This document shows, piece after piece, positions 1 to 49,042 of a DNA stretch of 64,000 nucleotides. Under the pieces are notes generated by a model. The model saw only the letters and a program-made list of their open reading frames with translations, made no database searches and had not been told where the DNA came from. The position numbers and the translations under genes are program-made. The stretch is from Rickettsiales bacterium (GTDB lineage Bacteria; Pseudomonadota; Alphaproteobacteria; Rs-D84): positions 1 through 64,000 of the forward strand of contig JAISAB010000020.1 of the NCBI GenBank assembly GCA_031266915.1, read 5' to 3'. Position 1 is the stretch's first letter; the number at the start of each line of letters is the position of its first letter.

Positions 1-936
1 GATACTCAACGTGATAAGGTGAATGAGTGGTATGGTTCGACCCTGTATTCGCGTCTGAACGATAAAACTAATGGGAAAATCTTGTTGATCATGCAGCGTC
101 TGCACCAAGATGATTTGACGGGACATCTGTTGGAATCTGATGCAAAATTTGGGCTTGTGAAATTGCCTGTAATAGCGATTGAAAACGAAACATGGCCAGT
201 CAAAAATCGCATATATGGTACGATACGAACTCTGATCCGTAACAAGGATGAGTTATTGCATCCAGACCGAGAAAATTTAGATACTATATTGGACTTAAAA
301 GGTTCGCTCGGTGAGTACGCATTCGCGGGACAATATCAGCAGGAGCCGTGTCCTGCCGAGGGTGGCATAATCAAGGAAGACTGGTTGCAGTATTATGACG
401 CAAGTATTTTTACCCCACAAATGCGAGTGCGACACTTGTTTATCAGTTGGGATACTGCTAATAAATCTGGTGAAAATAATGCTTACTCGGTTGGTTGCGT
501 GATTATCATGACATGGGATTACAAATTCTATTTGGTAGATGTAATCAGAGGCAAATGGGATACGCCAGAGCTGTTTGATAAAATCACAGCGGTTTATAAC
601 GATTATAAGTATGAACAAAAAGCAGGCAATTATGTGAAGTTGTTAATCGAAGATAAAGCCAGTGGTGAATTCTTGATACCGATGCTTAATAAGGCGTATG
701 ACAGTAGAAACCGATTGATTGAAACAATACCAATCAAACCGAGTGGTGATAAAATTTCACGTGCAAAAGCCGCAAGCATCATGATTGAAAAAGGCAATAT
801 GCTGTTCCCACAACATAACGAGCCGTGGTGGTTAGATTTCAAGAGAGAATTGCTCGGGTTTCCAGGCGGTAAATACAAAGACCAAGTGGACGCAATGTCG
901 CAATGCATAAATTACGCGATGGAGCAAGTTGGATAA
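1..936 (+). CDS. Phage terminase large subunit, C-terminal part (5' end outside window)
   Basis: The frame is open from base 1, so the gene starts before the window; a GTG at 19 is internal. The product resembles the C-terminal half of phage large terminases: the end of the ATPase module ('IMQRLHQDDLTGHLLES') followed by the RNase H-like nuclease that cuts concatemeric DNA during packaging. Candidate metal-binding acidic residues lie in 'SWDTA', 'IEDKASG' and 'DQVDA', in the order expected for that nuclease. A terminator follows directly. No portal or capsid gene lies downstream; the next genes are on the other strand, so this is either the edge of a prophage or a remnant. Family assignment is firm; activity is not known. 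Confidence 0.88.
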   Translation, partial: DTQRDKVNEWYGSTLYSRLNDKTNGKILLIMQRLHQDDLTGHLLESDAKFGLVKLPVIAIENETWPVKNRIYGTIRTLIRNKDELLHPDRENLDTILDLKGSLGEYAFAGQYQQEPCPAEGGIIKEDWLQYYDASIFTPQMRVRHLFISWDTANKSGENNAYSVGCVIIMTWDYKFYLVDVIRGKWDTPELFDKITAVYNDYKYEQKAGNYVKLLIEDKASGEFLIPMLNKAYDSRNRLIETIPIKPSGDKISRAKAASIMIEKGNMLFPQHNEPWWLDFKRELLGFPGGKYKDQVDAMSQCINYAMEQVG

Positions 937-942
937 ATAATT

Positions 943-973
943 TACCCCAGGTCATACTGGGGTATTTTTTATT
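943..973 (+). terminator. Rho-independent terminator after terminase gene
   Basis: A TACCCCAG / CTGGGGTA stem with a short loop is followed by TTTTTTATT. It can also serve the convergent minus-strand lipoprotein gene. Confidence 0.75.
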
Positions 974-1526
974 GTCTGTCCTTATATGGAATCGCCTTTT
1001 CTTTTTCAGTCATGCAGTCGAAAGTAAAATAACACTTACTATCAAACATACATATTGGACTTGATATTAATGCAAAAGGAGTGAATATAGGGGAATATAT
1101 AGATAAGCAAGAGAATGGCAGTAGTGGAAGGTGTTTCTTTCTCTGCTCATCGGGAAAATCCTCGTCATATTCTTTTAACAATTTCGCATTTTTCTCATCA
1201 ATCTTCATATCGTTATCTACGGTATAATCTGGAATTGTTTTTACAGAACCGAGTGCAGAATTATATCTGTATACGCCAACTTGTTTAACGCCTTTAACAT
1301 TGTATATGGCACCGTCAACAATATCAGACTTCATGTTCTTTATTTTGAAATGTCCCAGATTGTCACGATTTTTGTAATATGCTAAAATTTCGTCATTATC
1401 AATGACCTGTAAAACCTCAATATTACCTTCGGTTTCGTCAGTAACCATAGCGGGTTTATCGGGATAGTCTGGCGCCATACAACCAGCAATAAACAATATA
1501 GATATTATAAGAAGACTATTTTTCAT
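969..1526 (-). CDS. Small lipoprotein, function unknown
   Basis: A 185-residue product with a lipoprotein signal peptide: short basic start (MKNS), hydrophobic stretch, and lipobox 'FIAGC' with Cys16. The mature part is polar with many Lys, Asp and Glu, and its C-terminal third carries a hydrophobic, Cys-containing patch ('FSCLSIYSPIFTPFAL'). I recognise no family. It lies in the AT-rich island, convergent to the terminase gene and 11 bases downstream of the next small gene on the same strand, so the two may be co-transcribed. It could be a prophage-encoded surface or exclusion lipoprotein, but that is only suggested by location. Confidence 0.6.
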   Translation of the reverse strand: MKNSLLIISILFIAGCMAPDYPDKPAMVTDETEGNIEVLQVIDNDEILAYYKNRDNLGHFKIKNMKSDIVDGAIYNVKGVKQVGVYRYNSALGSVKTIPDYTVDNDMKIDEKNAKLLKEYDEDFPDEQRKKHLPLLPFSCLSIYSPIFTPFALISSPICMFDSKCYFTFDCMTEKEKAIPYKDRQ

Positions 1527-1789: not shown

Positions 1790-1810
1790 GTTTATTCCCT
1801 TTGTTTTTAT

Positions 1811-2030
1811 TAAAAAGACCGCCAAAGGGAATTAGCGGTCGGGGAGTTTGTAAATCAGTTTGTGATTGATTCCGAGGTCTTTGGGCAAGCCCTATTATAT
1901 AACCAACGGCTCCCCGACCATAAGGACGGGGACATAACGGCGCAGAAAGCACCATTACATCAGATAACGATGCAATGCTGCACCGCACAAACTGGGCTTA
2001 CAACAGCCCCGACTCCACATCCCTGTGGAA
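1811..2030 (-). ncRNA. Structured leader RNA, family copy 1
   Basis: Read on the minus strand. A 5' hairpin (TCCACA/TGTGGA, 2014-2029) is followed by a long-range stem (TTGTAA near 1998 with TTACAA near 1850). A hairpin CCCCGtC/GgtCGGGG precedes the core GTTATATAA. A small AATCA/TGATT hairpin follows, and a GACCGC/GCGGTC hairpin with a T run (1811-1840) ends the element about 20 bases before the Shine-Dalgarno sequence of the 1538-1789 gene. The arms differ in sequence from the other five copies but keep pairing. Copy 1 is the most diverged member. Confidence 0.7.
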
Positions 2031-2039
2031 TCATTGGAA

Positions 2040-2068
2040 ATCGTACATTAGAAAGTTGATGAAATCAA
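2040..2068 (-). promoter_or_regulatory. Sigma70-like promoter of leader RNA copy 1
   Basis: On the minus strand, TTGATT (2063-2068), 17 bases, then TACGAT (2040-2045). The predicted start is just before the 5' hairpin of the RNA, as in the other copies. The -10 box is the weakest of the six. Confidence 0.55.
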
Positions 2069-2150: not shown

Positions 2151-2927
2151 TTGAATAAAAAGCAGATAAAGCCGCTAGATATGCCATTTTTAGTTACAAA
2201 ATATATAAATGACAATATCCAAATCAATGTATTTGATTTGGAGGTGATTACCGATGGATTAAGGCAATTTATTGATGATAACATTTGTCAAATATGTGTT
2301 GGCGAGCACGATAATTTACAAAATATAAAGTCGGATTTGAAACGTAGACTTGATAGATGGAATAACGACAACAACAAGATAATGGGTGCAATTGCGGAAT
2401 TTTTTGCACATTTATATCTAAAACATTATGGATATAGGCAAGAGTGTTTATTCTTAAATCTTGAAGAAAACTCACTAAAAAAGGGATTTGATGGAGTATA
2501 TTCTATTGAAGAAGATTTGTGGTTTATGGAAAGTAAATCGGGCTCTGTAACTACTAATGATATAACTCATGCTTCAAAGGTACGAGACGCATTCTCTGAT
2601 GTAAAAAATAAAATAACCACTAATGTTAGTAATAATCCCTGGTTAAATGCTTATAATCATGCGAGGGTTGTAGGAACCAAGAAAAAATTACGTGATGACT
2701 TAAAACGATTATCCGATGATTTTATTAACCATAGCTATCAAACTATTGATGATAAAAACATCATACCGTGCGCTACTATATTTCTGAATGGTACTTGGCA
2801 GCAACAAAACCATAATGAAATCATACAATCTGTTAAAAATATATCAACATTGCAGGGTAAAAATATCCATATTGTTTGTATCACTCAAAACAGTTATGAA
2901 ATGTTTATGCGGTATTTGGAGTCTTAA
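2151..2927 (+). CDS. hamA: Hachiman anti-phage protein HamA (DUF1837-like nuclease)
   Basis: A 258-residue protein that fits the DUF1837/HamA family, the nuclease effector of Hachiman systems (also represented by AbpA of E. coli). Visible features are a 'GAIAE' helix motif (residues 79-83) and a PD-(D/E)xK-type core: Asp114 in 'GFDG' and Glu127-x-Lys129 in 'ESK'. In characterised systems the helicase partner holds HamA inactive until abnormal DNA is met. One base separates it from the helicase gene, indicating one transcript. The TTG at 2151 is the longest start; an in-frame ATG at 2181 is an alternative, and neither has a strong ribosome binding site. AT-rich codon use matches the partner and not the housekeeping genes. 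Confidence 0.85.
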   Translation: MNKKQIKPLDMPFLVTKYINDNIQINVFDLEVITDGLRQFIDDNICQICVGEHDNLQNIKSDLKRRLDRWNNDNNKIMGAIAEFFAHLYLKHYGYRQECLFLNLEENSLKKGFDGVYSIEEDLWFMESKSGSVTTNDITHASKVRDAFSDVKNKITTNVSNNPWLNAYNHARVVGTKKKLRDDLKRLSDDFINHSYQTIDDKNIIPCATIFLNGTWQQQNHNEIIQSVKNISTLQGKNIHIVCITQNSYEMFMRYLES

Positions 2928-2928
2928 A

Positions 2929-5364
2929 ATGAGTGATTCTATAAAAATTTCCAACCTTAAAAGTATTGAACCTATACATAATAGTATAAACAAATTGTTT
3001 CTATCTGATGTTTCTATTAGTAATGATGAAAAACAGTTTTTGTTAAGTCTCGCCATTGTTTTAGTAAATCAATATCAGAAAGATAAAAGCTATAAAACAG
3101 CTTTTGAATTTGCTTATTTTATAATTCTTAAATATTCAATTTTATTCCAAGATTGGCAACCATTATATGATTTAGCACTGAATTTTGGGTTATATCCAAT
3201 ATCAAATGCTATTATAAATAATAGCGGCATTTCACCTGATATAACAACTGAGACATTAACAGTAGCAACTGAATCTTTATTTAATAATAATGGTATTATA
3301 GAAACAAAGGAACAAAATATTTCAAGAAAAGGACTATTGTCTACAAATGAGTCTTTTATAAGTTATATAGCCCCAACATCTTTTGGAAAAAGCCAGGTTA
3401 TTATTGAGCATATTGGACAACATGTTGATTTTTATAATAAATTTTCTATTATTGTCCCAACGAAATCTTTATTAATGCAAACATATAAAAATATAAAACG
3501 AGCATTTCCGAGCCTCAGAGTTTTGATACATGATGAAATGTATAACGAAGGTGATGAAAAATTCATAGTTGTATTTACTCAAGAACGAGCATTACGACTA
3601 TTAGAAAAGCATCCAAATATATATTTTGATTGTTTATATATAGATGAGGCGCATAAACTGCTGGAAAATACAGACAGAAGTATTTTATTAACACGACTTG
3701 TAAGATTATCAAAATATAGGAACATTAATATCAAAATATTATATTTGTCGCCATTAATCAGAGATAGTAGTAACATTTCAATATCTAATCAGAATATACA
3801 GGAGTATAAAATAACTTTTAATATAAAAGTTCCTACTCTATACGAATACGCAAACAATGGCGATATTTTCATTTATAATCGTTTTTTTAATGAGTTTTAT
3901 AATGCTGAACATTTTAATAATAATTATCTACAATATATAAAAACTAAATCCACAGATAAGAATTTTATATATTTATATACTCCTATAAAAATTGAACGTT
4001 TTGCAAAAAAATTATTTGACTCTATAGAACATACGCTTATTAGCGATGAGATCACGCAGATAGTAAATAATCTTAATAAGTATGTGCATGAAGATTTTTA
4101 CGTTTCCAGATATCTAAGCAAAGGGATTATTTATATTCATGGAAAGATGCCTGACGACATAAAAGATTATCTAGAATATAAATTTAATGCTATTAGAGAA
4201 ATAAAATATTTAATTGCAAATAACGTCATATTAGAAGGTATAAACTTGCCATTTGATTCGTTATTTATAGTAGATTCTTACGGGTTAAATAAAAACTCTT
4301 TGATAAATCTGATTGGTCGTGTAAATAGGTTAAATATGGTATTTACAGATTCAATAACTGATCTATCAAAATTATTGCCATCAGTACATTTTGTTGAAAA
4401 TAATGGAGATTTTTGCACGTGCAGTATGGCAAATAAAATTAAATTATTGCAAACACCAGATTTTAATGATGATATCGATAATCCATTATTAGATAATTTT
4501 GATATAGAAAATGAAGGAGATTCAGAAAAGAGGGAAAAATGTGAAAAAATCATTAGCAATGAAGATTTAATATTTTCAGAAACGAATGACGACATACAGC
4601 TCTTAAAGCAGAATATGTTGAAACTTAGCATGAATCTTGTATACAATATATCAGATGAACTATGTAATGAAATTTTATCAAGAATTACATCATATAAAGA
4701 AAATGACGGAATATTATCTGATAAAGAAGGTATATTTGATTTATTGAGTCAAGTTTTTATAGACGATTTAGGTGCCGCGATAAGCGATAACGAATTTAGG
4801 CGTCTTGTTAATATTGAAAGTCGAAATTATTATTACAAATTAATAGTAAAACACAGAAAGAAATCACTGAAAGAGCAAATTTCGTTAACGGCCAGATATT
4901 TATATACGATAAAAAGAAATACTAATAAGCCATACTTGTATATAGGCTCTTCTTATGGCGAGTGTGATCGCAATGGTGGCCTTTTTAGTAATAATAATTG
5001 CTTTATAGACACTCGTAGAAAGAGTTACTCAGAGACCATTAACTTATCAATAATAAAGATAAAGCTTGAGGAAAATTTTATCAGTTTTACACTGAATAAA
5101 TTTTTCCAACTAATGTTAGACTATGAACTTATATCAACAGAAGTTTATAATAATTTAGTATATGGCACTAATGACCCCTTGATACTATCCTTAAGTAAAT
5201 TAGGACTAAGTTTAAATATAATAAATAAACTTATTAAAGACAATGAATTAAATAATCTATCAATTGATAGATTTGGAAATCTAGCATATAATGATCAATT
5301 TGTAACATATAAAGAAAATTCTGATGACTTTTTTAGATTTGAATTAGATAAGTTTTTGCCATAA
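2929..5364 (+). CDS. hamB: Hachiman anti-phage protein HamB (SF2 helicase)
   Basis: An 811-residue superfamily 2 helicase. Motifs seen: Walker A 'APTSFGKS' (148-155), a Ia-like 'IVPTKSLL' (175-182), DEAH box 'IDEAH' (238-242), and motif VI-like 'LIGRVNR' in the second RecA domain. About 130 residues before Walker A and about 300 after the helicase core are not recognisable, as expected for HamB. In known Hachiman systems HamB scans DNA and releases HamA. The ATG at 2929 has GGAG upstream and follows the hamA stop by one base; an ATG at 2788 in the same frame lies deep inside hamA and is unlikely. The gene is strongly AT-rich, suggesting acquisition by transfer. Confidence 0.85.
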   Translation: MSDSIKISNLKSIEPIHNSINKLFLSDVSISNDEKQFLLSLAIVLVNQYQKDKSYKTAFEFAYFIILKYSILFQDWQPLYDLALNFGLYPISNAIINNSGISPDITTETLTVATESLFNNNGIIETKEQNISRKGLLSTNESFISYIAPTSFGKSQVIIEHIGQHVDFYNKFSIIVPTKSLLMQTYKNIKRAFPSLRVLIHDEMYNEGDEKFIVVFTQERALRLLEKHPNIYFDCLYIDEAHKLLENTDRSILLTRLVRLSKYRNINIKILYLSPLIRDSSNISISNQNIQEYKITFNIKVPTLYEYANNGDIFIYNRFFNEFYNAEHFNNNYLQYIKTKSTDKNFIYLYTPIKIERFAKKLFDSIEHTLISDEITQIVNNLNKYVHEDFYVSRYLSKGIIYIHGKMPDDIKDYLEYKFNAIREIKYLIANNVILEGINLPFDSLFIVDSYGLNKNSLINLIGRVNRLNMVFTDSITDLSKLLPSVHFVENNGDFCTCSMANKIKLLQTPDFNDDIDNPLLDNFDIENEGDSEKREKCEKIISNEDLIFSETNDDIQLLKQNMLKLSMNLVYNISDELCNEILSRITSYKENDGILSDKEGIFDLLSQVFIDDLGAAISDNEFRRLVNIESRNYYYKLIVKHRKKSLKEQISLTARYLYTIKRNTNKPYLYIGSSYGECDRNGGLFSNNNCFIDTRRKSYSETINLSIIKIKLEENFISFTLNKFFQLMLDYELISTEVYNNLVYGTNDPLILSLSKLGLSLNIINKLIKDNELNNLSIDRFGNLAYNDQFVTYKENSDDFFRFELDKFLP

Positions 5365-5615: not shown

Positions 5616-6044
5616 ATGAAAAAATTTATACTATTTGGAATGATGGTTGTACTGACTGCGTGTGGCGAGCCTGATAATTCACCTGCATATGTACAAAGTG
5701 CCAAGACCGATGTTCGTAATGCCATTGTCGCAAATATTATCCAAGATACTCATTTCAAATGCTTTTCTATTCAAGATGTAGTCACTACAATTTGGACGAT
5801 GGCTTGCTTTATGGACAACGAACCAAATCCAACGCCGATTCTATTGTATGCAGTGCATGAGCTGCCGTCTGATATCAATCCGCCGTTTACATATCAACTG
5901 GTCGCGTTGAATGGCAAGGCAATCCAATACAAAGACAAGCCGGCATTTAAAATGTTTAAAATAACACGCGGCGAGGATGTTACGATGAATGTTCGCGTTT
6001 CGGAAATTATACAGTTGTATCAAGAAGCATATTTTAACAAATAG
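5616..6044 (+). CDS. Small lipoprotein, function unknown
   Basis: A 142-residue protein with a clear lipoprotein signal: MKKF start, hydrophobic core and lipobox 'LTAC' with Cys at residue 16. The mature domain is mixed alpha/beta-looking with two further Cys residues ('FKCFS' and 'MACFM') that could form a disulfide. AAAGGAAAT precedes the ATG. The gene is bracketed by an imperfect 23-bp direct repeat and followed by a terminator, so it appears to be a self-contained cassette next to hamAB. No family recognised. Confidence 0.65.
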   Translation: MKKFILFGMMVVLTACGEPDNSPAYVQSAKTDVRNAIVANIIQDTHFKCFSIQDVVTTIWTMACFMDNEPNPTPILLYAVHELPSDINPPFTYQLVALNGKAIQYKDKPAFKMFKITRGEDVTMNVRVSEIIQLYQEAYFNK

Positions 6045-6243: not shown

Positions 6244-6636
6244 ATGGATAAAATTAATAAACTTCATGAACTTGCCGCAAAGCGACCAACTGATTTCATT
6301 TTCAAATTTCACATGAATCTTCTTACCGAAGACTTGTTGGGCAAGCAAAAGAATGATTTTTATGAAGAATTTATCGAAACGATAGTATATATTGGCGAAT
6401 ATCATAGCATAGCGTCTTTCTTTGAGAATGATAGTATCATGATTATGAAAATAATCGAAGCATTCGCGAATAAATTCGGACGGGAAGAATTCAAGGCTCA
6501 TTTGGTTGGCGCCGAAGGTTTCTCGGAAAAACAAGCCTCAGATATGATAAAGAAATCCGTCTATGTATCCAATGTCGTCAATGGCAGCGGTTTAATTTCC
6601 AAACTTGCTAGAAAAATTTTGTGCTGGAACAGGTAA
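6244..6636 (+). CDS. Hypothetical protein
   Basis: A 130-residue, mostly alpha-helical, highly charged protein without signal peptide or membrane segment. It starts MDKINKLHELAAK and contains Phe/Ile-rich helices in the middle. A weak Shine-Dalgarno-like AGGAAA precedes the ATG. I recognise no family. It is the last gene of the AT-rich island: base composition changes sharply to GC-rich at the next gene, and a terminator lies between them. Confidence 0.55.
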   Translation: MDKINKLHELAAKRPTDFIFKFHMNLLTEDLLGKQKNDFYEEFIETIVYIGEYHSIASFFENDSIMIMKIIEAFANKFGREEFKAHLVGAEGFSEKQASDMIKKSVYVSNVVNGSGLISKLARKILCWNR

Positions 6637-6661
6637 AAAAGTCAACCGAGGGTAAAAAAAT

Positions 6662-6691
6662 GCCCCGTGGGTTGATCGGGGCGTTTTTTTA
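6662..6691. terminator. Bidirectional terminator at island boundary
   Basis: GCCCCG / CGGGGC stem followed by seven Ts on the plus strand; it lies between convergent genes and overlaps the end of the peroxiredoxin gene. Confidence 0.75.
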
Positions 6692-7483
6692 TTTCTTCTT
6701 TTTCGCCGCCGGTTTTTTGGCGGGCTTTTTCGGCGCGGCCAGAGCCTTGGGCTTTACAAAGATTTTATCGAATACTTCCTGGGCGGACAATTTCTTGAAT
6801 GTCATAAACCAATCCTTGACGGTCAGCGATTTGTCTTTGCTCGCCAGGCGCTCTTTGGCCCCGGCCGCGGTTCTGGGCGCGCCTATGATAACGTCTTCGC
6901 CAGGCAGCCAATCCGCCGGCGTGCTGACGCCGAACACGTCCGAAGTCTGCAACGCCGCGACCAGGCGCTTGATTTCGGTAAAGTTGCGTCCCGCGCTCTG
7001 CGGATAATACAAGATTGTGCGGACGATTCCGGACGGGTCTATGATAAACACCGCGCGCACGGTCTTGGTGTCGGACGCGTTCGGATGCAGCATGCCGTAT
7101 TTTTTTGCCACGGTCATTTTTGTGTCGTCGATAACTGGGAACTGTATTTCCAAATTCGACCAGCTGCGGAACTCGATTTTATTCTGAATTTCGCGCATCC
7201 ATGCGATATGGCTGGTCAAGGAACCAATCGACAGTCCGATGATTTCCGTGTTCATGGCGCGGAATTCTTCCAGCATGGATTGAAAGGTCATGAATTCGGA
7301 CGTGCACACCGGGGTGAAATCCGACGGATGCGAAAACAGAATAACCCATTTGCCCTTGTAATCGTCTGGAAAGTTCACGGGGCCGTTGGTGGTCTCGGCC
7401 GTGAATTCCGGCGCCAGGTCGCCAATCAGCGGCATGGAAACCGCCGTTTCTTCGCGACATTGATAATCAAAAAAATCATGCAT
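6689..7483 (-). CDS. 1-Cys peroxiredoxin (Prx6-like) with basic tail
   Basis: A 264-residue thiol peroxidase that reduces hydrogen peroxide and organic hydroperoxides. The AhpC/TSA domain has the peroxidatic Cys60 in 'HPSDFTPVCTSEF', typical of the Prx6 branch, which lacks the usual C-terminal resolving Cys; Cys9 ('DYQC') is an extra Cys near the start. The end is a Lys/Ala/Pro-rich tail of about 25 residues ('APKKPAKKPAAKKKK'), not usual for the family. The ATG at 7483 is chosen because AAAGGAG lies at ideal spacing; the frame itself opens at 7513. The gene stands alone between a terminator and the region upstream of the IHF/HU gene. Confidence 0.92.
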   Translation of the reverse strand: MHDFFDYQCREETAVSMPLIGDLAPEFTAETTNGPVNFPDDYKGKWVILFSHPSDFTPVCTSEFMTFQSMLEEFRAMNTEIIGLSIGSLTSHIAWMREIQNKIEFRSWSNLEIQFPVIDDTKMTVAKKYGMLHPNASDTKTVRAVFIIDPSGIVRTILYYPQSAGRNFTEIKRLVAALQTSDVFGVSTPADWLPGEDVIIGAPRTAAGAKERLASKDKSLTVKDWFMTFKKLSAQEVFDKIFVKPKALAAPKKPAKKPAAKKKK

Positions 7484-7671
7484 ATTTTTCTCCTTTGCTC
7501 TGCCTATGTGCATGATACCCGCCCCAAAATATTATTACAAGGATATTTGAACGAAATCCGGCTGTTTGCGGCCTGTTTCTTTTCCTATAGAATCACAGAA
7601 AATATTTTTTACTTTACTCTTGCTAAAATGTGCTAAGATATAAATAATAAGTGATATTTGCAAAAGCGAGG

Positions 7672-7862
7672 GATGAAACCGCGCGTCGCGGGGTGCATCG
7701 ATTCCAACAAAACCAACCACTACAAAAAAGGAAAAAGAGATGAAACCGAGTGAACAAGCATTAGATTTTTTGCGTTATTAGCAAAAAATCGTACATGCGC
7801 GTCACAAGGTTGCATCGGTTCCAACAAAACCAACCACTACAAAAAAGGAAAAAGAGATGAAA
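7672..7862 (+). repeat. Duplicated leader region upstream of the IHF/HU gene
   Basis: A ~54-base segment (7692-7745), containing GCATCG, CCAACAAAACCAACCAC and the ribosome binding site AAAAAAGGAAAAAGAG followed by ATGAAAC, is repeated at 7809-7862, exactly 117 bases later, with few changes. A shorter upstream match (GCGCGTC) extends both copies. The first copy drives a 13-codon frame, the second the real gene. The rest of the gap 7484-7671 shows no gene. Confidence 0.8.
7740..7781 (+). CDS. Possible 13-residue leader peptide
   Basis: ATG after the first copy of the duplicated ribosome binding site opens MKPSEQALDFLRY and then a stop. Its last codons form the left arm of a 10-bp hairpin GATTTTTTGC / GCAAAAAATC (7764-7791). 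The arrangement could attenuate or tune the downstream IHF/HU gene, or be an inert duplication scar. Translation is not proven. Confidence 0.35.
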   Translation: MKPSEQALDFLRY

Positions 7863-8138
7863 CGTTCTGATATTATACGGTCCATACAGGTCCAATTCAA
7901 ACATATGCGCCCCGCCGACGCGGCCGCTATCCTGGATACGGTTGCGGAAACCGTGATAAATTCCGTCGTCGCCGGCGACAGAATCGAAACCCGCGGATTC
8001 GGCACGTTCCAGCCGCGCGTGCGCGCCACGAAAATCGGATACAATCCATGTACGGGCAAGCCCATGCACCTGGACGCGGGACGCACGATTCTGTTTAAAC
8101 CCTCGCGAGAGCTGACAAAGAAAATGAACGATTTCTAA
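7857..8138 (+). CDS. IHF/HU family DNA-bending protein
   Basis: A 93-residue member of the HU/IHF family, of usual length. It starts MKRSDIIRSI and has the typical beta-arm region with 'GRTILFKPSRELTKK' at the end, the IHF-beta-like C-terminal signature. The segment 'RIETRGFGTFQPRVRA' matches the conserved 'GFG.F' strand. These dimeric proteins bend DNA in nucleoid organisation, replication and recombination. The DNA-contact tip normally reads 'GRNP'; here it is 'GYNPCTGKP', with a Cys. It is preceded by a duplicated leader and followed 57 bases later by the accDA fusion. IHF-beta versus HU cannot be decided from sequence alone. Confidence 0.88.
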   Translation: MKRSDIIRSIQVQFKHMRPADAAAILDTVAETVINSVVAGDRIETRGFGTFQPRVRATKIGYNPCTGKPMHLDAGRTILFKPSRELTKKMNDF

Positions 8139-8195: not shown

Positions 8196-9935
8196 ATGTC
8201 GTTATTTGGCAATAAAAATGGTATAAAAAACCGCAATCGCGACCGGTATGACCGCGTCCGCCGCCTGATGTGGATTAAGTGCGAGGCTTGCGGCCGCCTG
8301 GTTTATTACAAGGATTACAAGGATAATCACTATATCTGCCCGCGCTGCAATCGTTCGTTTATCATGACGCCGAAACAGCGTTTCGATTTGCTGTTCGACG
8401 ACAATGGGTGGAGCAGGGTTGTGCTGCCTGTGGTTTCCGACGACCCGCTGGATTTCACGGACCGCATTCCGTACACGGATAGGCTGGCCGAGGCGCGCGA
8501 GGACACCGGTTCCAGCGACGCCGTATCCGCCGCCGACGGAGTCATCGGTGGAATCCCGGTAACAATCGTCGTGCTGAACGGCGACTTTATGATGGGCAGC
8601 ATGGGGCGCGCGGTGGGCGACGGCATTATCGCCAGCATTGAACACGCGCTGGAATTGAAACAGCCGCTGATAATGGTTACGACCAGCGGCGGCGCCCGAA
8701 TGCAAGAAAACATCCTGGCGCTGATGCAGATGGCGCGCACGACCGTCGCGGTGAACAAGCTGCACGCGAACGGCATTCCTTATATTGTATTGCTGACCGA
8801 CCCGACGTACGGCGGCGTGACGGCGTCGTTCGCGATGCTGGGCGACATCCATATCGCCGAATCAGGCGCGCGAATTGGCTTTGCCGGCCGCCGAGTAATC
8901 GAGCAGAATATACGCGAGAAATTGCCGTCGAATTTCCAGACGGCAGATTATTTGTACGAACACGGAATGGTCGACATGGTTGTCCCGCGCATCGAATTAA
9001 AAGCCCGGCTGGAAAACATCCTGGCGGTGCTGACCAAGCAGGAAAAAGAGTCAAAGCCTATCTCTATTATCACGCCTCGGGCTGATTCGTCCAAAAAGAC
9101 GCGCGGCATGGGCGAAACGCCGGCGTATGATAAAGTGCTGCTGGCGCGCAATGAAAACCGTCCGCATTTTCTGGATTATGTCCAGGGGATTGTCGGCGAT
9201 TGGACGTATCTGGCGGGCGACCGATTGTTCGCCGAAGATCCGGCCATGTGCAGCGGAATCGGTTTCTGGCGCGGAATTCCGGCCGTGATTATCGGCCAGG
9301 AACAGGGCCGCACAATCGAAAGCCGCCAAAAGCACCGCTTTGGCATGGCGAATCCCGACGGCTATCGCAAAGCCCAGCGTATGATGCGTCTGGCGGAAAA
9401 GTTCCAATTGCCGCTGATTTCATTATTCGACACCGCCGGCGCGTTCGCCGGCCGCGATGGCGAAGAACGCGGCCAGTCTCAGGCAGTGGCCGCGTCTATA
9501 TCGACCGGTTTGGCCATCAAGACGCCGTACGTCGCGGTCAACGTGGGACAGGGCGGTTCCGGCGGCGCGATTGCGATTGGCACAGGCGACCGGATATTGA
9601 TGCTGGAAAACGCGATTTATTCCGTGATTGCGCCTGAATCCTGCGCGTCGATATTATGGAAAGACAACAAGTTCAAGGCCCAGGCCGCCGCCGCCATGAA
9701 ACTGACTGCGCGCGACATGGCCGACCTGAATGTAATAGACAGGATTATCGAAGAACCGGCGGGCGGCGCGCACATGGATTGGCAGACGACGATGGAAATG
9801 CTGTCGGTCGCGGTCGCCGACGCCATCGGGGAATTGTCGGATATTCCGGCGGCCGAATTGCCGGCGCGCCGCGCGGAAAAATTCATCTCCATGACCCGCG
9901 ACGTCGAGATATACCAGCCCGAACACAAAGAATAA
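8196..9935 (+). CDS. accD-accA: Acetyl-CoA carboxylase carboxyltransferase, fused beta and alpha subunits
   Basis: A single 579-residue frame carrying both halves of the carboxyltransferase that moves the carboxyl group from biotin to acetyl-CoA, the first committed step of fatty acid synthesis. Residues 1-285 are AccD: a zinc finger with Cys29, Cys32, Cys48 and Cys51, then 'TTSGGARMQE'. Residues from about 290 are AccA: 'FDTAGAFAGRDGEERGQS' and 'GQGGSGGAIAIG'. Most bacteria encode the two separately, giving an alpha2-beta2 complex; here the order is beta then alpha with a short linker and no frame break. The ATG sits directly after AAGGA, an unusually tight spacing for a ribosome binding site. 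Confidence 0.93.
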   Translation: MSLFGNKNGIKNRNRDRYDRVRRLMWIKCEACGRLVYYKDYKDNHYICPRCNRSFIMTPKQRFDLLFDDNGWSRVVLPVVSDDPLDFTDRIPYTDRLAEAREDTGSSDAVSAADGVIGGIPVTIVVLNGDFMMGSMGRAVGDGIIASIEHALELKQPLIMVTTSGGARMQENILALMQMARTTVAVNKLHANGIPYIVLLTDPTYGGVTASFAMLGDIHIAESGARIGFAGRRVIEQNIREKLPSNFQTADYLYEHGMVDMVVPRIELKARLENILAVLTKQEKESKPISIITPRADSSKKTRGMGETPAYDKVLLARNENRPHFLDYVQGIVGDWTYLAGDRLFAEDPAMCSGIGFWRGIPAVIIGQEQGRTIESRQKHRFGMANPDGYRKAQRMMRLAEKFQLPLISLFDTAGAFAGRDGEERGQSQAVAASISTGLAIKTPYVAVNVGQGGSGGAIAIGTGDRILMLENAIYSVIAPESCASILWKDNKFKAQAAAAMKLTARDMADLNVIDRIIEEPAGGAHMDWQTTMEMLSVAVADAIGELSDIPAAELPARRAEKFISMTRDVEIYQPEHKE

Positions 9936-11095: not shown

Positions 11096-11184
11096 GGAGC
11101 GTTGGCAGAGCGGTAATGCAGCAGATTGCTAATCTGTGACCGCAGTAATGCGGTCCATAGGTTCGAGTCCTATACGCTCCGCCA
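11096..11184 (+). tRNA. tRNA-Ser (anticodon GCU)
   Basis: The acceptor stem GGAGCGT pairs with ACGCTCC, followed by discriminator G and an encoded CCA (11182-11184). The anticodon loop is ATTGCTAAT with anticodon GCT, reading AGC/AGU codons. A long variable arm (ACCGCAGTAATGCGGT) identifies a class II tRNA, and the T arm is ATAGGTTCGAGTCCTAT. The length of 89 bases is normal for tRNA-Ser. Confidence 0.95.
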
Positions 11185-48283: not shown

Positions 48284-49042
48284 ATGAAATTTAAATTTTT
48301 CGCAACTTTTATGACAATAATTTTGACATCGACGACACATACCTGGGCGGCATCGTGCTGGATAGCTACAAAACCAACCAGCAGTAACTACATCGCATGC
48401 CTGCAGTCGCACACAGGATATTGGAATTGCAATTCTTCCAGCAGTTGCGGCAGCTCACAAGTAACTGCTGTCACAGGCAAACCCTATGGATTTTCTGATG
48501 CCAATACAATGAGCACGAGCGAAATGACGTCCTGCGGTGTAATCTGTACTCCATATGGTTTTAGAATGTTTGCTAATAACGATGCTGAAGCGATTGATTG
48601 CAACGGTACATGGGATTTAAATTCCAGCACTCGCGAAGCAGTATGTCAATGCAACGTTAGAAGCTGCACTGCTTGCAACAGCGTGTCGGTCGAGCAATGG
48701 ATTGCTATGAGCGGAACGGGCACGATCGTGTTCCAAGTGAAGCAGACCCGCACCGCCACGTGTTCAGGAAACACCTGCACCAGCAACGGCAGCTGCTCTA
48801 CCGGAAGCTGGACCAACACCAACAATTACCGCTGCTCGGCGGGATATTATGGCAGCGTTTCGACCAGCAACTACAGCTGCGCGCTGTGTCCGTGCATGAC
48901 AGACACTGGCGGCGTCAATCGCTGCGGCGCCAGTTCCGCCGGTACTACTCTTGTCAGTGGATGCGTCATGGCGACCGAATACGAATTTAACGACGGGACC
49001 GGCGATTATTCATTTACGACCGCATGTCCGGCATCATTGTAA
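48284..49042 (+). CDS. Exported Cys-rich protein (GYYG family)
   Basis: A 252-residue exported protein with signal peptide 'FFATFMTIILTSTTHTWA'. The mature part carries more than 20 Cys residues, mostly in pairs ('CNVRSCTACNS', 'CALCPCM'), the shared motif 'YRCSAGYYGSV', and Ser/Thr/Asn-rich stretches. It resembles the 17.1 kb paralogue in layout: N-terminal variable part, Cys pairs, GYYG block, short tail. AAAAAGGAGG lies before ATG 48284; the frame upstream from 48257 belongs to the leader. Function unknown; a surface or matrix protein stabilised by disulfides is plausible. Confidence 0.75.
   Translation: MKFKFFATFMTIILTSTTHTWAASCWIATKPTSSNYIACLQSHTGYWNCNSSSSCGSSQVTAVTGKPYGFSDANTMSTSEMTSCGVICTPYGFRMFANNDAEAIDCNGTWDLNSSTREAVCQCNVRSCTACNSVSVEQWIAMSGTGTIVFQVKQTRTATCSGNTCTSNGSCSTGSWTNTNNYRCSAGYYGSVSTSNYSCALCPCMTDTGGVNRCGASSAGTTLVSGCVMATEYEFNDGTGDYSFTTACPASL

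What the first reader, a model, noticed from the sequence alone, without database searches (positions are those of the whole stretch)
2151..5364. Hachiman (HamAB) anti-phage system in an AT-rich island next to a terminase fragment
HamA has D114 and E127-x-K129 of the DUF1837 nuclease; HamB has Walker A, DEAH and motif VI of an SF2 helicase; the genes are one base apart. The base composition differs from the chromosome and phage-like genes are adjacent, pointing to transfer as a defence cassette. Both proteins seem diverged from described ones.
Basis: partly seen in the sequence, partly recalled or inferred. Interest (0 to 1): 0.7.

Follow-up and report, generated by a model that had tools for sequence, protein, structure and literature searches.

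The report
Divergent Hachiman system on mobile island
A small-genome alphaproteobacterium carries an intact, very divergent version of the two-gene anti-phage system Hachiman, riding on a roughly 11.5 kb integrative element that has phage DNA-packaging genes but no recognised phage particle genes and that in related bacteria carries other defence systems instead.

Summary
hamA (2151-2927) and hamB (2929-5364) are intact, one base apart and 27.5% GC in a 51% GC genome. HamB hits PADLOC HamB models (1e-45). HamA hits no HamA/DUF1837 HMM directly, but its AlphaFold model matches solved HamA (Z 10.3; next unrelated fold 4.9), an intermediate homologue passes the PF08878 cut-off, and D114/E127-x-K129 align with all HamAs compared. 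It is a Hachiman of a divergent clade whose HamA standard HMMs miss.

The 'terminase fragment' is not a fragment: the contig begins inside TerL, and its other half starts contig C10 of the same genome. Joined, they give an integrative element of about 11.5 kb: large serine recombinase, DUF2924, ParB-methylase, DUF5681 (TerS-like), TerL, lipoproteins, hamAB. It lies between prx and tRNA-Ser(CGA), a site empty in relatives. At least 15 related loci in this family carry the TerL module (some degenerate), with other cargo such as class II pAgo plus nuclease, type I and type II R-M, a DrmD-like helicase and a KAP ATPase. I found no capsid or portal genes in them; PF04860 and PF05065 hit 0/60 family genomes. 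A terminase-bearing, satellite-like carrier of defence genes is the novel reading; mobility is not shown.

The parts
1..936 (+). C-terminal 311 aa of TerL (terminase large subunit); the N-terminal 171 aa are at G000:C10:1-514(-); in-frame total 482 aa
   Evidence: PHROG_38 1.5e-63, TIGR01630 5e-20, Terminase_6C 2.5e-9; junction
969..1526 (-). small lipoprotein of the element (185 aa), function unknown
   Evidence: signal/lipobox by eye; no structural PHROG family; lipoprotein-like ORFs also follow TerL in L078, L079, L080, L081
1538..1825 (-). small ORF of the element (95 aa), unknown
   Evidence: no family hit
1793..2048 (.). dispersed palindromic repeat (21 matches in the own genome), between the lipoprotein ORFs and hamA; not specific to the element
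   Evidence: no Rfam match
2151..2927 (+). hamA: divergent DUF1837-type PD-(D/E)xK nuclease, 258 aa; catalytic D114, E127, K129
2929..5364 (+). hamB: Ski2-like SF2 helicase, 811 aa; Walker A 148-155, DEAH 239-242, motif VI 463-467
   Evidence: PADLOC HamB1 1.1e-45, Pfam DEAD/ResIII/Helicase_C over cut-off; 9wh1_B 3.3e-17 and AbpB 8zue_B 3.3e-8
5616..6044 (+). lipoprotein (142 aa) at the right end of the element, unknown
   Evidence: phrog_24444, E 1.2e-4; GC 39%
6244..6636 (+). ORF of 130 aa, unknown; last low-GC gene before the chromosome (right boundary near 6640-6690, inferred)
   Evidence: GC 36% against 52% for prx; absent beside prx in relatives
6689..7513 (-). chromosomal flank: peroxiredoxin (prx), followed by HU and accD-accA; the empty site in relatives is prx - 113-aa gene - tRNA-Ser(CGA) - amidase

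Best explanation
hamAB is an intact, divergent Hachiman system. HamB, a Ski2-like helicase, patrols DNA and holds the HamA nuclease in check. On meeting damaged or replication-intermediate DNA during phage infection it uses ATP to unleash HamA, which degrades phage and host DNA, so the infected cell is sacrificed. The pair is cargo of an integrative element of about 11.5 kb (large serine recombinase, DUF2924, ParB-N/N6-N4 DNA methylase, DUF5681 TerS-like, TerL, lipoproteins, hamAB) inserted beside tRNA-Ser(CGA). Shown here: gene content, active-site residues, fold, purifying selection, insertion site, and recurrence of the element with other defence cargo and no recognised capsid or portal genes. 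Inferred: DNA-damage sensing and abortive infection (from E. coli Hachiman), excision by the recombinase, and spread by packaging with the element's own terminase into a helper's particles.
For: HamB: PADLOC HamB1 1.1e-45 and Pfam helicase domains. HamA: AF2 model (pLDDT 73.5) against 8vx9_A, Z 10.3 over 194 residues; next non-Hachiman fold 4.9; Foldseek top hit 8vxy_A, 1.9e-5, the only one below 1e-3. Bridge: G761 HamA scores 26.8 bits against the PF08878 cut-off of 25 and aligns with window HamA at 27%, 5e-16; profile-profile E 1.7e-5, probability 79%. D, E and K invariant in 13 HamAs; E83 and G112 too. dN/dS about 0.11 for both genes against L014. Element: TerL halves abut in frame across C26/C10, with recombinase, DUF2924, ParB-methylase and DUF5681 on C10. 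Relatives have the empty prx - tRNA-Ser(CGA) - amidase site. Sister elements carry class II pAgo plus Aga_Helical-REase, type I and II R-M, KAP (PDC-S20), DrmD-like helicase. The G058 hamAB, the only other one among 59 family genomes screened, lies 183 bp from a TerL remnant of the same element family. Mechanism of E. coli HamAB: PMC12278908.
Against: No HamA HMM detects HamA directly, and the profile comparison without the bridging sequence is weak (probability 19%). The GE-x-K glycine of canonical HamA is Met here. No defence assay exists for any member of this clade, as far as I found. The C26/C10 join rests on frame, TerL length and synteny, not reads (1-base overlap). No att duplication was found (serine recombinases need only about 2 bp). 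Capsid and portal absence was tested with one Pfam family each plus PHROGs on 68 cargo ORFs, so unfamiliar structural proteins could be missed. Some elements are degenerate (TerL of 242 aa in G045, remnants in G058, G036 and G035).
Confidence: 0.85

Rival explanations
1. The island is simply a decaying prophage: a WO-like or other temperate phage that lost its head and tail genes during genome reduction. hamAB was prophage cargo and the rest is debris.
For: Wolbachia WO regions show a recombinase immediately downstream of a DUF2924 gene in a lineage with terminase-portal prophages (PMC10299305). Some family copies are clearly degenerate: TerL of 242 aa in G045 and remnants in G058, G036 and G035. 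The host genome is small (1.09 Mb).
Against: The same five-gene core recurs in at least four genera with intact TerL of 478-516 aa and different cargo. TerL and recombinase show pN/pS 0.21-0.28. The closed genome G035 has four TerL loci and no portal or capsid hit. Independent decay to the same core in many copies is unlikely.
Confidence: 0.35
2. The pair is not Hachiman but another helicase-nuclease system (for example AbpAB-like, PD-T4-4-like or a new type) that works differently.
For: HamA is undetected by all HamA HMMs. A broken S. aureus HamA-like ORF has a weak PD-T4-4_A hit (E 0.002), and G638 HamA has a weak CARF-PDDEXK hit (2e-4).
Against: The fold match is specific to HamA: all three structures over Z 5 are Hachiman HamA, 8zue_A (Z 9.3) being the Hachiman structure whose B chain is named Anti-bacteriophage protein B. 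HamB hits only HamB models strongly. A bridging HamA passes PF08878.
Confidence: 0.1
3. hamAB is inactive or repurposed, for example a replication or repair module of the element rather than an anti-phage defence.
For: No functional data for this clade; the small host genome might be expected to shed costly systems (inference).
Against: All catalytic motifs intact and dN/dS about 0.1. Other elements carry recognised defence systems in the same cargo zone. L014 hamAB sits among Cas9, a C5-methylase and other defence genes.
Confidence: 0.08

Closest known systems
Hachiman (HamAB), E. coli ECOR31 type; PMC12278908, structures 8vx9/8vxy
   Same: Two-gene operon, DUF1837-type nuclease with D...E-x-K, Ski2-like SF2 helicase with an N-terminal helical region; same HamA fold (Z 10.3)
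   Different: HamA below detection by PF08878 and all PADLOC HamA models; Met instead of Gly before the catalytic Glu; HamB in its own clade (7 rows, 100/100 support)
AbpAB (structure 8zue, titled Hachiman in the PDB)
   Same: Nuclease plus helicase; HamA domain of 8zue_A matches at Z 9.3, AbpB hits HamB at 3.3e-8
   Different: The matching part of 8zue_A is residues 260-536 of a longer chain; here HamA is a single 258-aa domain
Phage satellites (PICI, cfPICI, P4-like, PLE, PICMI, VEIME/tycheposons; reviewed in PMC11389934)
   Same: Small integrated element with an integrase and phage packaging genes, defence cargo, no complete set of structural genes
   Different: Uses a large serine recombinase with DUF2924 and a ParB-methylase; has TerS-like and TerL but no recognised capsid gene (cfPICI have capsids); no helper known; no induction shown
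Wolbachia phage WO / WO-like regions (PMC10299305)
   Same: Alphaproteobacterial terminase regions in which a recombinase follows a DUF2924 gene
   Different: WO has portal, capsid and tail genes; these elements show none

Membership tests
Hachiman (HamAB) | hamA and hamB adjacent, same strand | tested here: met
   pair conserved in G058, L014, L015, G638, G761
Hachiman (HamAB) | HamB is an SF2 helicase of the HamB family with intact motifs | tested here: met
   PADLOC HamB1 1.1e-45; Pfam DEAD and Helicase_C over cut-off; Walker A, DEAH, motif VI
Hachiman (HamAB) | HamA has the DUF1837/HamA fold | tested here: met
   AF2 model against 8vx9_A Z 10.3, 8vxy_A 9.5, 8zue_A 9.3; next fold 4.9; bridge through G761 HamA
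Hachiman (HamAB) | direct hit of HamA to curated HamA HMMs (a detection criterion, not a biological definition) | tested here: not met
   no PF08878, PADLOC or NCBIfam hit; hence 'divergent clade'
Hachiman (HamAB) | catalytic D...E-x-K of HamA | tested here: met
   D114, E127, K129 aligned and invariant in 13 HamAs, 7 of them classical
Hachiman (HamAB) | DNA-damage-triggered DNA degradation and phage defence | not testable with these tools
   needs bench assays; known for E. coli HamAB (PMC12278908)
Complete prophage | portal, capsid and tail genes linked to the terminase | tested here: not met
   none among 48 cargo ORFs with all PHROG hits shown, none in the 25 of 64 families shown for 68 ORFs; PF04860 and PF05065 0/60 genomes
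Phage satellite (any family) | integrase plus packaging genes without a complete structural set | tested here: met
   recombinase, DUF5681, TerL; no recognised structural genes
Phage satellite (any family) | induction and packaging by a helper phage | not testable with these tools
   no helper identified; would need induction and particle sequencing
cfPICI | own capsid genes | tested here: not met

The most novel reading that the evidence does not exclude
A new family of satellite-like integrative elements in reduced-genome gut-type Alphaproteobacteria: large serine recombinase, DUF2924, ParB-DNA-methylase, TerS-like and TerL core, no structural genes, typically inserted beside tRNA genes (mostly tRNA-Ser). 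Their variable cargo zone is a reservoir of defence systems (divergent Hachiman, class II pAgo with nuclease, R-M, KAP and DrmD-like genes), and they spread by packaging themselves with their own terminase into particles of an unidentified helper phage or gene-transfer agent.
Probability: 0.4. Interest if true: 0.72.

Novelty: new variant of a known kind. Interest (0 to 1): 0.5.

Why it matters
It exposes a clade of Hachiman whose HamA PADLOC and Pfam HMMs miss, so Hachiman is probably undercounted. It also shows defence genes sitting, in about 1-Mb genomes, on a recurrent element that keeps a terminase but no recognised capsid. If packaging is confirmed, this would be a new satellite type and would explain how streamlined gut Alphaproteobacteria gain and swap immune systems.

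Tried and rejected
(1) Direct HMM proof of HamA: Pfam, PADLOC, NCBIfam, PHROGs and phmmer/hmmsearch against PDB sequences gave nothing; replaced by bridging and fold. (2) IMG/VR scans with HamA, HamB, their alignments and TerL gave no relatives. (3) Phage and plasmid collections: only distant HamBs, plus a broken S. aureus copy and a Subdoligranulum plasmid copy. (4) 'Terminase fragment as prophage debris beside hamAB' rejected: contig edge. (5) att direct repeats between the C10 tRNA end and the window right end: none. (6) Rfam: only tRNA-Ser at 11096 in the window. (7) Literature for DUF2924 found only Wolbachia papers; searches for a terminase/serine-recombinase satellite in Alphaproteobacteria found no description of this element.

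Full report
CHECK. GC is 27.5%, compared with 50.8 +/- 2.7% for 3.2-kb stretches of the rest of the window, whose minimum is 44.8%. HamB scores over the Pfam cut-offs for DEAD, ResIII and Helicase_C and hits PADLOC HamB1 at 1.1e-45. HamA hits nothing convincingly: no Pfam, PADLOC, NCBIfam or PHROG family above chance, no PF08878 match in the genome, and no PDB chain by sequence.

IS HamA A HamA? Relatives settle it. The pair recurs in family member G058 (HamA 56%, HamB 61%), in an uncultured alphaproteobacterial MAG (L014, 71/72%), in a Flavobacteriales MAG (L015, 38/40%), and in proteobacteria G638 and G761. G761 HamA passes the PF08878 cut-off (26.8 against 25 bits) and aligns to window HamA over about 200 residues (27%, E 5e-16). 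With it, the profile of this clade meets a profile of seven classical HamAs at E 1.7e-5 (probability 79%); without it, only 19%. D114, E127 and K129 line up with the catalytic residues of all seven classical HamAs, as do E83 and G112. The AlphaFold model (pLDDT 73.5) finds HamA of E. coli Hachiman first: Foldseek 1.9e-5, the only hit below 1e-3. By VIA-align the scores are Z 10.3 (8vx9_A), 9.5 (8vxy_A) and 9.3 (8zue_A), with nothing else over 4.9. A HamB tree puts the window clade apart from classical HamBs (7 rows, 100/100; composition and long-branch warnings apply). Both genes are under purifying selection against L014 (dN/dS about 0.11).

HOW IT WORKS. Inferred from E. coli Hachiman (PMC12278908): HamB binds intact dsDNA and restrains HamA. 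Damaged or 3'-overhang DNA engages ATP-driven helicase movement, HamA is activated, and all DNA in the cell is degraded. The residues needed for this (HamA E-x-K, HamB DEAH) are present. Not shown here: complex formation, activity, defence.

THE TERMINASE. The window is base 1 onward of contig C26 of a 1.09-Mb, 26-contig genome. TerL 1-936 is the C-terminal 311 aa of a protein whose relatives are 478-492 aa. The first 171 aa lie at the start of contig C10...DPLKPADAMS | DTQRDKVNEW..., against DPLKPSDSLSDAQRDKLNDW in G006. Joined (1-base overlap) they give 482 aa without a gap. C10 continues with DUF5681 (TerS-like, 74.9 bits), a ParB-N/N6-N4 DNA methylase, DUF2924 (71.2 bits) and a large serine recombinase (Resolvase plus Recombinase). 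Then come a DUF2321 gene and tRNA-Ser(CGA) at C10:5136-5225, with an amidase gene further on.

EMPTY SITE. In relatives, accDA-HU-prx is followed by a 113-aa gene, tRNA-Ser(CGA) and an amidase-like ORF (clearest in L102, L103, L105, L106, L108; tRNA-Ser(CGA) in 9 of the 11 loci scanned, with occasional other small genes between). In the own genome the element lies between prx (window 6689) and that tRNA. This confirms the C10/C26 adjacency independently and bounds the element at roughly 11.5 kb. The 113-aa gene is missing here.

A RECURRENT ELEMENT. TerL homologues occur in 19 of 60 family genomes. Around them the same module recurs: ParB-methylase, DUF5681 and TerL (usually intact, 478-516 aa), with DUF2924 and the recombinase at one end, in at least 15 related loci (L016, L078-L082, L084, L091-L095, L097-L099, L120-L122; some are partial, cut by contig ends or degenerate). 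Beyond the recombinase there is a tRNA within about 0.2-1 kb in several: Ser(CGA) here, Ser(TGA) in G024, G006 and one G035 element, Ser(GGA) in another G035 element, Pro in G045, Gly/Tyr in G037. Cargo differs: class II pAgo (708 bits) with Aga_Helical-REase (297 bits) in G035; type I restriction in G017; MTase plus PDC-S20 KAP ATPase in G023; type II restriction in G010; a DrmD-like helicase beside the second G035 element. L078 holds a nuclease-like ORF and a trypsin-like protein. The G058 hamAB, the only other one among 59 family genomes screened, lies 183 bp from a TerL remnant of this element family. As a rough estimate by inference, two of two hamAB loci within 1.3 kb of a TerL in about 1-Mb genomes is about 1e-4 or less by chance.

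NO PARTICLE GENES. Of 48 cargo ORFs scanned with every PHROG hit displayed, none matched a structural family; the same holds for the 25 of 64 families displayed in the larger scan of 68 ORFs. Phage_portal PF04860 and Phage_capsid PF05065 hit 0 of 60 family genomes while controls ring, including the closed genome G035, which has four TerL loci. Unfamiliar structural proteins are not excluded.

WHAT IT IS. Works like, and by homology is, Hachiman: a divergent clade whose HamA standard HMMs miss. The carrier resembles phage satellites in gene logic (integrase plus packaging genes, defence cargo, no particle genes) but fits none of the named families I compared, and neither induction nor packaging was tested. 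The main rival for the carrier is parallel decay of WO-like prophages; intact TerL, purifying selection (pN/pS 0.21-0.28) and cargo turnover argue against it. Host: class Alphaproteobacteria; size and relatives recall order Rs-D84 / Ca. Enterousia (PMC12306168), not verified.

SCORE. hamAB alone would be about 0.3; the carrier raises it to 0.5.

Noticed in passing
window 1793-2048; also G000 C22:19247-19487, C13:9218-9438, C2:7404-7674: Dispersed repeat with 21 matches in the 1.09-Mb genome. Other copies show about 40-bp inverted ends (AAACCGCCAA..GGTCGGGGAGTTGATAAATCA and its reverse complement), like a palindromic or MITE-like repeat; no Rfam match.
   Followed up: partly
L080 6469-9761 (G035 C1): Class II prokaryotic Argonaute next to an Aga_Helical-REase inside a sister TerL element.
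   Followed up: partly
L014 3755-17850: Defence island around the closest hamAB relative (72%): C5-methylase, DUF262-like ORF, compact type II-C-like Cas9 (998 aa) with Cas1/Cas2-like ORFs and a repeat array (read by eye).
   Followed up: no
L010 3226-6425 (S. aureus plasmid NZ_CP077937.1): Hachiman of this clade broken into several ORFs (hamA in two, hamB in three) beside a transposase-like ORF.
   Followed up: no
L016 11216-12466, L082 4829-6079, L093 5052-6302, L121 8784-9998: A conserved protein of about 416 aa with no Pfam hit (nuclease-like VETKLYRN motif) directly follows TerL in many elements; possible core gene of a subgroup.
   Followed up: partly
window 8196-9935: accD and accA appear fused in one 579-aa ORF; the ORF is also long in family relatives (cut by locus ends).
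   Followed up: no
PDB 9wh1/9whk/9whu: Closest solved chain to HamB is recorded as 'DNA polymerase theta (helicase domain only)' but aligns as a HamB-like helicase; possibly mislabelled.
   Followed up: no
window 7691-7746 and 7808-7863: Two 56-nt direct repeats, 96% identical, just before the HU gene.
   Followed up: no
window 48733-48822 (-): ARAGORN reports a tRNA with an unresolved two-base anticodon.
   Followed up: no
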